Source: Chloroflexota bacterium | Lineage (GTDB): Bacteria > Chloroflexota > Anaerolineae > Aggregatilineales > J027 | Length of the DNA stretch: 36,293 nt | Assembly: GCA_022616515.1 (NCBI GenBank) | Contig: JAKEEQ010000100.1 | Location: forward strand, 1-36,293 | Direction of reading: 5' to 3' | Notes under the pieces: model-generated | The model's database searches: none | What the model was told of the DNA's origin: nothing | The model's input: only the letters and a program-made list of their open reading frames with translations | Part shown: positions 21,542-23,803 of the stretch, piece by piece | Layout of the letters: every line of letters starts with the position of its first letter | Numbering within the stretch: the first letter of the stretch is position 1 | Translations under genes and position numbers: made by a program

Positions 21542-22423
21542 TTATCTGCGCTGACTCTTGAATTCAGGGCGGTCTTTTTCGCCACCTGTCTTCTCATCGT
21601 CGAAAAGTTTCTGGATGTAGGTAGTGATTGTGCCGTCCAACGTAGTTGGATATTCAAAGCCGAGATATTTGGCTGTCTCCGAGGCAATGCGCCGGAACAG
21701 AATCATCGCACCAAACAGCGACTGCCAGCTTTCCACCGGGTCAAAGTGCGCAAATACTTTGTGAAGGGCACGCCACGTTTCATCGTCCGTCCACTCGCGC
21801 AAGAAATTGCCGCCATACCAGGTATCTTTTCGGGAGATGACCTGCGACTGCCATTCAATCATTTGGAATAGATGCCCGGTGAGCTGCCAGTTTGTGGTTT
21901 TGACAACCCACATATTGCGACGGCGAATTTGCTTGGCAACGGCAACGGCGTTGTGCCAGAAATAGTTGACAGTGCTCATAAATTCTTCGGCTGACGGCTT
22001 TTCAAAGGTTGGCTTTGAGAAAATTTGAGGCGGGAGAAACTTGGCAAGATTATCTTTGTCAATCAACACACGATAGCCACGCTGCTGGCTCTCCATAAGC
22101 GCCTGTTTCTCAACCTGTTCGCGGAGAAAGTCCAACGGAAAGAACGTGAAGTCAACCTTTGCGCCGCCTTCATACAGGACCCAGAATAGCGGATCGCCGT
22201 CGTTGGTCTGGTGGAGCTGCTTCAGCCACACCGTCCCGAATTCGTCAGCAAAAGTGCCACTTGCGAAATAATCGTCAAACTCGGTGACGTAAATATCAAT
22301 GTCCAGATCGGACCACTGGTCAGCCGGGCGGTCCTGCCGGGCCTGCGAACCAGTGACAAGAATGGTCCGAATTTTAGGGCGAACGATGCCCCATGCGGTA
22401 ACTTTATCTTCATACTGCTTCAT
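21542..22423 (-). CDS. ANT(6)/AadE-like aminoglycoside 6-adenylyltransferase-family nucleotidyltransferase
   Basis: ILVTGSQARQDRPADQWSDLDIDIYVTEFDDY (GS-x-DxD nucleotidyltransferase) and VDFTFFPLDFLREQV; overall pattern of PF04439. Confidence 0.82.
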   Translation of the reverse strand: MKQYEDKVTAWGIVRPKIRTILVTGSQARQDRPADQWSDLDIDIYVTEFDDYFASGTFADEFGTVWLKQLHQTNDGDPLFWVLYEGGAKVDFTFFPLDFLREQVEKQALMESQQRGYRVLIDKDNLAKFLPPQIFSKPTFEKPSAEEFMSTVNYFWHNAVAVAKQIRRRNMWVVKTTNWQLTGHLFQMIEWQSQVISRKDTWYGGNFLREWTDDETWRALHKVFAHFDPVESWQSLFGAMILFRRIASETAKYLGFEYPTTLDGTITTYIQKLFDDEKTGGEKDRPEFKSQRR

Positions 22424-22442
22424 TGGAAGCTTGGCGCGGAAA

Positions 22443-22462
22443 CCCCGTTGCTGGCAACGGGG
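22443..22462 (-). terminator. Perfect hairpin downstream of iscB (terminator or element end)
   Basis: CCCCGTTGC-TG-GCAACGGGG, 9-bp perfect stem, followed by TTT on the minus strand. Confidence 0.55.
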
Positions 22463-22479
22463 CAGAGCGCCTATCCTTT

Positions 22480-23412
22480 CTAAATATGGTAAGCATATCC
22501 ATCACAATGATGCATGATACGGCAATCTCTGTAACTAATTCCCTGCGCAGTGTCATTCACGGTTTTGATGTCGAAAAACCCGGATGCGCGAACCGCCACC
22601 CGTCCGGTGTAAGTGCCTGCTTTCTTGCCGCTGGTGACTACTGCTCTGACCATATCGCCTGTTTGAAAACCCTTGACTGTGCGCTGTTGTTTCGCTCTGG
22701 TGCGCGGGAAACCGTACTTGTCCACCCGGCACATCTGGCGCGATTGTCGTCCGGTGGCAGTGATGATTAAGGGTCGCATTGTTGCGGGGACAAAGACCTG
22801 CTCACCACTGTCTCCCACACAGACGGCATCCAGCCAGTGGGTTTTGGGATAGCCCTGCCGGATGCGATTGTATTTGGTGCGTGCCCCAGTTCCGATTTCA
22901 AGGGGTAATCCGGTTGCCTTCAACTGCTTGTATAACTCCCAACGAGTAGCATTGACCGCCGCCGCATCTTTCAAGGGTTGTTTAGCCCTGGCTCCAATCT
23001 CAGGATAGCCGAATTCGGCGGCCGTCTGGTTGCCTTTTTCCCGATTACAGTCTTCACAGGCGATGGTAAGATTGCTCACCCGCTGGCTGCCGCCGCGTGC
23101 TTTGGGGACAATATGTTCAACTTCGAGCGGCATATCCGTCACCCCACAATATGCACAGTGGTGTTCCCATTTTTCCAGAAGATGCAGAATCCTGAAATCA
23201 GCGACAATGGCGATGCCCGTCGTTTTCGATCCGGGATCAATCTTGACCTGGATCTCTTGCGTTTTACCACCGTCACGCTCAAGCAAGATGATGGTGAAGG
23301 GCTGCTGGCGCAACACCGCTGCTTTGGCACTGCTCAACAGTTGCCGCGCCCGTGCCGGATGACACGGCATCAACGGATTTTTATGTTTGTCTACCACCAA
23401 GACACGTTGCAT
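22480..23412 (-). CDS. iscB: IscB-family RNA-guided nuclease homologue (PLMP + RuvC-I + HNH + RuvC-III + C-terminal domain), apparently lacking bridge helix and RuvC-II
   Basis: MQRVLVVDKHKNPLMPCHPARARQLLSSAKAAVLRQQPFTI (PLMP), KIDPGSKTTGIAIV (RuvC-I), CAYCG...LEVEHIVPKARGGSQRVSNLTIACEDCNREKGNQ (HNH), GYPKTHWLDAVCVG (RuvC-III), GFQTGDMVRAVVTSGKKAGTYTGRVAVRASGFFDI (C-terminal). GIAIVAD runs directly into FRILHLLEKW-HHCAYCG. Confidence 0.92.
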   Translation of the reverse strand: MQRVLVVDKHKNPLMPCHPARARQLLSSAKAAVLRQQPFTIILLERDGGKTQEIQVKIDPGSKTTGIAIVADFRILHLLEKWEHHCAYCGVTDMPLEVEHIVPKARGGSQRVSNLTIACEDCNREKGNQTAAEFGYPEIGARAKQPLKDAAAVNATRWELYKQLKATGLPLEIGTGARTKYNRIRQGYPKTHWLDAVCVGDSGEQVFVPATMRPLIITATGRQSRQMCRVDKYGFPRTRAKQQRTVKGFQTGDMVRAVVTSGKKAGTYTGRVAVRASGFFDIKTVNDTAQGISYRDCRIMHHCDGYAYHI

Positions 23413-23625
23413 TGAAAGTTACCTTTCGGTTCTCTGCTTGCGCAGGTAATGTCCTCCTCGCCCATGTTATGCGATGGTTTTATATCCGCATGACACTGAT
23501 TTAGACCCTCAATCTGTTTAATCGTGCGGCGCAGAGTACGGGGCTGGAGCGTCACCCCGTAGTGCCTATATATTCACCGCTAACGTAGCCGCTGCCTCTC
23601 GGCGTGGCTAGGGCTGGTCAACATG
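23413..23625 (-). ncRNA. Putative omega-RNA upstream of iscB
   Basis: Consecutive hairpins on the minus strand: TAGCCacGCC-GAGA-GGCagcGGCTA (23586-23610), TACGGGG...CCCCGTA (23537-23561), CTGC-GCAA-GCAG (23434-23445), ACC-GAAA-GGT (23421-23430), three of them with GNRA loops, in the position expected for an IscB omega-RNA. Confidence 0.55.
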
Positions 23626-23658
23626 AGCATGTATCACATGCTCCGCAGGTTGCTGCGG
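23625..23658. repeat. Two adjacent hairpins at the distal end of the iscB leader
   Basis: GAGCATGT-ATC-ACATGCTC (23625-23643) and CCGCAG-GTTG-CTGCGG (23643-23658). Confidence 0.6.
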
Positions 23659-23803
23659 GGTCGTTGACACTGCTTCATGGTAGTGTTTTCCCAGCGCGAT
23701 CATCAGCAAAACAGTGTGCAAGCGATTGCTTGCCGTCATGTACGCGATGCAATACAATGCTATACAAATATTAAGCAATTTGCTAATTGAAAGAAGGGGA
23801 AAT

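What the first reader, a model, noticed from the sequence alone, without database searches (positions are those of the whole stretch)
22480..23412. Deletion-form IscB: PLMP, RuvC-I, HNH, RuvC-III and C-terminal domain kept, bridge helix and RuvC-II gone
Seen directly: the 310-aa ORF is uninterrupted and runs IDPGSKTTGIAIVAD|FRILHLLEKWEHHCAYCG, so RuvC-I is joined almost directly to the helix before HNH (junction near nt 23190-23200). From established knowledge of IscB (canonical proteins about 400 aa or longer), the Arg-rich bridge helix and the RuvC-II Glu segment lie in exactly this interval. IsrB lacks HNH and IshB lacks RuvC; this layout matches neither. Inference: the RuvC site is probably dead while HNH stays intact, giving either a natural HNH-only nickase or binder, or a recently deleted but still in-frame relic.
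Basis: partly seen in the sequence, partly recalled or inferred. Interest (0 to 1): 0.82.

Follow-up and report, generated by a model that had tools for sequence, protein, structure and literature searches.

The report
Broken IscB gene in mobile element
One copy of a common RNA-guided DNA-cutting gene (IscB, the ancestor of Cas9) has lost its middle third through a copying error that also flipped 25 bases, and is most likely a non-functional but still readable copy of a mobile element whose intact sisters sit elsewhere in the same genome.

Summary
Observation confirmed. The 310-aa ORF at 22480-23412(-) is an IscB (NCBIfam 246.8 bits, cut-off 175) preceded by a complete HEARO omega-RNA (23446-23668, 134 bits). 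[quoted passage not shown] New here: the junction is not a simple deletion. Twenty-five bases at the seam (23178-23202) are the reverse complement of the QKMQNPEIS segment that follows RuvC-II in the sisters, with 9-10 bases of homology at the first switch. This is the signature of a replication template switch. An assembly fault is unlikely: contig breaks show k of about 101, while the switch homologies are 10 bases or less. The junction occurs nowhere else searched. The genome also carries at least 12 ORF-less 351-375-bp mini-elements with the same omega-RNA and right end, so this family spreads without its own ORF. AlphaFold predicts that HNH and the C-terminal domain still fold, while the PLMP/RuvC core collapses. 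Best reading: a recent, defective, in-frame derivative; RuvC dead, RNA-guided activity probably lost. A natural HNH-only nickase or binder is not excluded but lacks support.

The parts
22480..23412 (-). internally deleted iscB ORF, 310 aa
23197..23412 (-). PLMP domain plus RuvC-I (D59 of IDPGSK), residues 1-72; the rest of the RuvC-I sheet is missing
   Evidence: Pfam RRXRR 1-75 of 174; alignment
23178..23202 (-). inverted 25-base segment at the seam: reverse complement of the QKMQNPEIS coding segment that follows RuvC-II in sisters; the first 10 bases (GCTGATTTCA) are the switch homology
23005..23175 (-). HNH domain, residues 80-136, two CxxC pairs and catalytic His (EVEHIVP) kept
22804..23004 (-). 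RuvC-III segment (KTHWLDA, H and D kept), residues 137-203
22480..22803 (-). C-terminal WED/TAM-interacting region, residues 204-310 and stop
23446..23668 (-). HEARO / omega-RNA scaffold, complete (model 1-211 of 211), 134.3 bits
23669..23688 (-). left flank that would serve as the omega-RNA guide (AAACACTACCATGAAGCAGT)
   Evidence: guide role by analogy with IscB
22424..22479 (-). right end of the element (...CCCCGTTGCCAGCAACGGGGTTTCCGCGCCAAGCTTCCA), shared with sisters and mini-elements
22420..22423 (-). ATGA abutting the right end: TAM-like, also the start codon of the neighbouring ANT(6)-like gene

Best explanation
The ORF is a defective copy of a mobile omega-RNA/IscB (HEARO, OMEGA) element. 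A full-length iscB suffered one replication error. The polymerase reached the VADF codons, switched at CTGATTTCA to the opposite strand of the PEIS codons about 310 bases on, copied about 25 bases backwards, then switched back at the LLEKW codons. This removed 113 aa and left an inverted stub, by luck in frame. The protein keeps HNH and the DNA-end (TAM-reading) domain but has no RuvC site, no bridge helix to hold the guide seed and a broken PLMP/RuvC core, so RNA-guided cutting is very probably lost. The element can still persist and perhaps move, because full-length sisters and a transposase in the same genome could act in trans, as they presumably do for the ORF-less mini-elements. Shown: anatomy, inverted seam, sisters, mini-elements. 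Inferred: template switching, loss of activity, help in trans.
For: Seven full-length sisters of ~423 aa in the same genome with the lost interval intact. Inverted seam: 25 of 28 bases against sister C69 inverted, versus 18 of 28 direct and a maximum of 20 in 2000 shuffles; blastn finds the same minus-strand piece at E 1.4e-5. Switch homology CTGATTTCA, 9 bases, in C69. Unique junction: 0 of 395 other genomes of the class, 0 in IMG/VR; all intact relatives measured have 139-141 aa between IDPG and CxYC, against 28 here. AlphaFold: pLDDT 35-58 for residues 31-80 here versus 86-92 for the same part in a full-length relative; pTM 0.32 versus 0.64; best PDB TM 0.32 versus 0.61. The bridge helix anchors guide nucleotides -8 to -1, and loss of the REC linker alone abolished editing (PMC9640706). 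32 HEARO hits, most without an iscB; mini-elements 351-375 bp with the same ends.
Against: No stop or frameshift in 310 codons; retained parts show pairwise dN/dS 0.10-0.17, like sisters among themselves, and no significant excess of private amino-acid changes (13N:3S versus 32N:15S, Fisher p 0.52). If the deletion covered the whole terminal branch (0.12 substitutions per site), neutral survival of the ORF would be only 2.7%, so either the event is recent or some constraint remains. AlphaFold used 16 sequences and a forced gap, without RNA.
Confidence: 0.8

Rival explanations
1. A functional HNH-only OMEGA protein: bridge-helix-less IscB that, with its omega-RNA, nicks the target strand or binds DNA/RNA as a repressor or as a competitor of full-length sisters.
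For: Open frame, HNH catalytic and zinc residues and C-terminal domain intact, HNH and C-terminal blocks predicted at pLDDT about 75-89, complete high-scoring omega-RNA, dN/dS like that of sisters.
Against: Singleton; no guide-seed anchor; PLMP/RuvC core predicted to collapse; the seam is a chance in-frame stub, and two of the three frames through it are open anyway.
Confidence: 0.08
2. Physical or assembly artefact: the locus holds a full-length iscB and the seam was made by a chimeric read or a collapsed repeat.
For: Draft assembly (564 contigs, 80.6% complete) in which other iscB copies break contigs (C520, C521); inverted microhomology joints are also typical of amplification chimeras.
Against: Contig ends overlap by exactly 101 bases in two pairs, so graph paths need about 100 shared bases, while the two switches share 10 or fewer; the contig runs unbroken for 36 kb; the copy is clearly diverged from every sister (DNA about 71-83% identical), not a mosaic of them.
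Confidence: 0.09
3. An older deletion form kept by purifying selection for an unknown, non-RNA-guided role of the HNH/C-terminal half.
For: Low dN/dS in HNH and C-terminal parts.
Against: The inverted stub still matches all 16 invariant positions of its source, which mildly favours a recent event; no orthologue with the junction.
Confidence: 0.03

Closest known systems
IscB / HEARO OMEGA nuclease (NF040563; OgeuIscB, KraIscB)
   Same: PLMP, RuvC-I start, HNH, RuvC-III, C-terminal domain, upstream omega-RNA, insertion beside a TAM-like ATGA
   Different: lacks bridge helix, REC linker, RuvC-II Glu and part of the RuvC sheet; 310 instead of ~423 aa
IsrB
   Same: PLMP and RuvC-I start; similar size (~350 aa)
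   Different: IsrB keeps the complete RuvC and bridge helix and lacks HNH (PMC9581776); here the reverse
IshB (from own knowledge: PLMP plus HNH without RuvC)
   Same: HNH without a working RuvC
   Different: this ORF keeps RuvC-I and RuvC-III stubs and the C-terminal domain, and is plainly a derivative of full-length IscB sisters
Standalone omega-RNA loci used in trans by IscB (cited in PMC9581776)
   Same: omega-RNA element without an intact own nuclease, in a genome with full-length IscB
   Different: this copy still carries about three quarters of the ORF
Short-range replication template-switch mutations (e.g. PMC7954356, PMC8604942)
   Same: inverted short segment flanked by inverted microhomology
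   Different: here combined with a ~340-base net deletion inside iscB

Membership tests
IscB | Sequence-family score above the curated NCBIfam cut-off | tested here: met
   246.8 bits versus 175
IscB | N-terminal PLMP domain | tested here: met
   NPLMP at residues 12-16, aligned in full
IscB | Split RuvC with D (I), E (II), H and D (III) | tested here: not met
   RuvC-I D59 and RuvC-III H192/D195 kept; RuvC-II Glu absent
IscB | Arg-rich bridge helix | tested here: not met
   whole segment missing
IscB | HNH domain between RuvC-II and RuvC-III | tested here: met
   Pfam HNH 1.9e-12, catalytic His and CxxC pairs kept; RuvC-II itself is gone
IscB | Upstream omega-RNA (HEARO) | tested here: met
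   RF02033, 134.3 bits, full length, same strand
IscB | RNA-guided DNA cleavage | not testable with these tools
   needs an RNP assay
IsrB | No HNH, complete RuvC plus bridge helix | tested here: not met
   HNH present, RuvC incomplete
IshB | PLMP plus HNH, no RuvC motifs | tested here: not met
   RuvC-I and RuvC-III stubs present; IshB definition from own knowledge, no IshB sequence compared
Template-switch mutation | Inverted copy of nearby sequence at the seam with microhomology at the switch points | tested here: met
   25-base inverted segment, 9-10 base homology at the first switch; second switch only about 4-7 bases and not certain

The most novel reading that the evidence does not exclude
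A naturally arisen minimal OMEGA protein that dispenses with bridge helix and RuvC-II yet still works with its omega-RNA, as an HNH-only target-strand nickase or as a binder that competes with the full-length sisters.
Probability: 0.06. Interest if true: 0.75.

Novelty: new member of a known kind. Interest (0 to 1): 0.3.

Why it matters
As it most likely stands, it is a clean natural example of how a template switch breaks an RNA-guided nuclease gene in one step while leaving it readable, inside a genome that holds the whole series from full-length (about 1.6 kb) through deleted (1245 bp) to ORF-less (about 0.36 kb) omega-RNA elements. If the protein were active, it would show that the bridge helix is dispensable in an OMEGA effector, which would change ideas on the minimal guide-holding unit of the Cas9 lineage.

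Tried and rejected
Simple-deletion model of the seam: rejected, the seam bases match no sister in direct orientation better than chance but match inverted. Search for the same junction in 395 other genomes of the class and in IMG/VR: none. Search of 249 class genomes for a single continuous match 1-310: none but the window; a 314-aa frame in G174 (L118) is cut by a contig end, a 266-aa one (L116) runs into sequence that looks like a group II intron end. Plasmid tblastn: the 20 listed records all match in two pieces spaced as in full-length genes. Paper search found no report of this architecture in the open-access library. One automated end-finding (C80, length 731) was a false pattern match and is ignored; the first stub-conservation count was misaligned by one base and is replaced.

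Full report
OBSERVATION. Pfam gives RRXRR (residues 4-77, profile 1-75 of 174 only) and HNH; NCBIfam gives guided_IscB at 246.8 bits, cut-off 175, in two separate stretches. Directly 5' of it on the same strand lies a complete HEARO RNA (RF02033, 23446-23668, 134.3 bits), the known omega-RNA of IscB.

SISTER COPIES. The window's own genome (6.8 Mb, 564 contigs, 80.6% complete) holds seven full-length relatives of about 423 aa (contigs C57, C69, C80, C107, C306, C345, C426) and two more cut by contig ends (C520, C521). In the alignment the window protein is colinear with them except for one gap of 113 aa between VADF and LLEKW. The gap removes the third RuvC-I strand, the Arg-rich bridge helix (...LLKRRQQRRTRRSRKTRYR...), the helix after it and the RuvC-II strand with its Glu (LAMEL), up to the helix before HNH. 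RuvC-I Asp59, the HNH His100 and zinc Cys pairs, RuvC-III His192/Asp195 and the C-terminal domain remain. All intact relatives measured in other genomes have 139-141 aa between IDPG and CxYC; here there are 28.

THE SEAM. The seam is not a plain joint. The 25 bases GCTGATTTCAGGATTCTGCATCTTC (window 23202-23178, coding strand) are the reverse complement of the bases coding QKMQNPEIS, which follow RuvC-II in the sisters. The 28-base seam matches sister C69 inverted at 25 of 28 positions, directly at 18; 2000 shuffles reach 20 at most. Blastn reports the same minus-strand piece independently (E 1.4e-5). At the left switch the sister C69 has CTGATTTCA both in the VADF codons and, inverted, in the PEIS codons (9 bases, about 310 bases apart); at the right switch the homology is short (about 4-7 bases) and less certain. 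The simplest cause is a polymerase that switched to the other strand, copied about 25 bases backwards and switched back (inference; such events are described, e.g. PMC7954356, PMC8604942).

IS IT AN ASSEMBLY FAULT? Reads are not available. Two pairs of contig ends in this genome share exactly 101 identical bases (C22/C390 and C520/C521), which points to a de Bruijn graph with k near 101. Neither switch point shares more than about 10 bases, far below any k in common use, and the contig runs 36 kb. A physical chimera in the library stays possible but would have to dominate the depth.

AGE AND SELECTION. Pairwise dN/dS of the retained parts against sisters is 0.10-0.17, as among the sisters. Private changes are 13 nonsynonymous to 3 synonymous versus 32 to 15 in the four nearest full-length sisters (Fisher p 0.52). 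The stub matches all 16 invariant positions of its source, and a neutral ORF of this length would survive the whole terminal branch (0.12) with probability 0.027 but a recent 0.02 with 0.49. The data therefore fit a recent event followed by little evolution; they do not show selection for the short form. In-frame survival of the event itself is a chance of roughly one in three, and two of three frames through the stub are open.

STRUCTURE. AlphaFold with 16 sequences gives the short protein pLDDT 67.9 and pTM 0.32; the same sequences give a full-length relative (L033) 79.5 and 0.64. Residues 31-80 fall to 35-58, versus 86-92 in the relative, while HNH and most C-terminal blocks stay near 75-89. 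Foldseek still recognises IscB/IsrB for both, but the best query TM-score is 0.32 versus 0.61. The forced gap and shallow alignment limit this evidence. In solved OgeuIscB the bridge helix anchors guide nucleotides -8 to -1 and helps hold the nexus pseudoknot, and replacing only the REC linker reduced RNP integrity and abolished editing (PMC9640706). Loss of all of these makes RNA-guided activity improbable.

THE ELEMENT. Comparison of flanks defines an element of 1245 bp (22424-23668) with the omega-RNA at its left end and a shared right end, abutting ATGA; full-length sisters measure 1596-1613 bp. The genome has 32 HEARO matches; of the 30 inspected only 8 have an iscB of this family nearby. 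At least 12 of the others are mini-elements of 351-375 bp with the same omega-RNA and the same right end, without any ORF. Such standalone omega-RNAs can work with IscB in trans (cited in PMC9581776). One strong Y1 transposase is present in the genome (C552), but its link with these elements was not tested. So an element with a dead iscB need not be a dead element.

HOW IT MOST LIKELY WORKS. It most likely does not cut DNA: it is a defective, internally deleted derivative, with its omega-RNA possibly used by full-length sisters. Shown: anatomy, inverted seam, sisters, mini-elements, uniqueness in what was searched. Inferred: mechanism of origin, loss of activity, help in trans.

COMPARISON AND NOVELTY. 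By descent and score it belongs to IscB; by defining parts it fails two (RuvC-II Glu, bridge helix), so it should be filed as a deleted derivative of IscB, not as an IscB nuclease. It is not IsrB (HNH present, RuvC broken) and not IshB as generally defined. No report of this layout was found in the open-access library. As a singleton, probably inactive copy it is a new member of a known kind, with modest interest.

Noticed in passing
own genome, loci L084, L086, L087, L089, L092, L093, L095, L096, L099, L101, L102, L107 (also L094): ORF-less mini-HEARO elements of 351-375 bp with the same omega-RNA scaffold and right end as the iscB-bearing elements, carrying a shared ~75-base hairpin-rich middle in place of the ORF: a non-autonomous omega-RNA family.
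   Followed up: partly
right flanks of the HEARO elements; in the window 22423: Elements end exactly before ATGA/GTGA that is often a start codon: 9 of 19 are followed by an ORF of 100 or more codons from that ATG, against 15% for control ATGAs (binomial p 0.0008). In the window it is the start of an ANT(6)-like adenylyltransferase gene.
   Followed up: partly
22414-22423 and 23669-23678: The 10-mer ATGAAGCAGT (minus strand) lies directly on both sides of the window element, like a target duplication; not seen at the other copies looked at.
   Followed up: no
L116 (G174:C712, minus strand, contig end): An iscB relative whose 5' part is replaced by sequence resembling the 3' end of a group II intron (GAGCCGTGTGCGGGGAAACTCGCACGCACGGTTC).
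   Followed up: no
own genome C397, C426 (1-6000), C136: Further subfamilies: another IscB of 401 aa and two proteins of 357 and 386 aa that match only the N-terminal half of the IscB model (IsrB-like), so several OMEGA lineages share this genome.
   Followed up: partly
window 21542-22423, minus strand: ANT(6)-like nucleotidyltransferase (NCBIfam AadS 129 bits, far below the 450 cut-off), so a relative and not a proven resistance gene.
   Followed up: no
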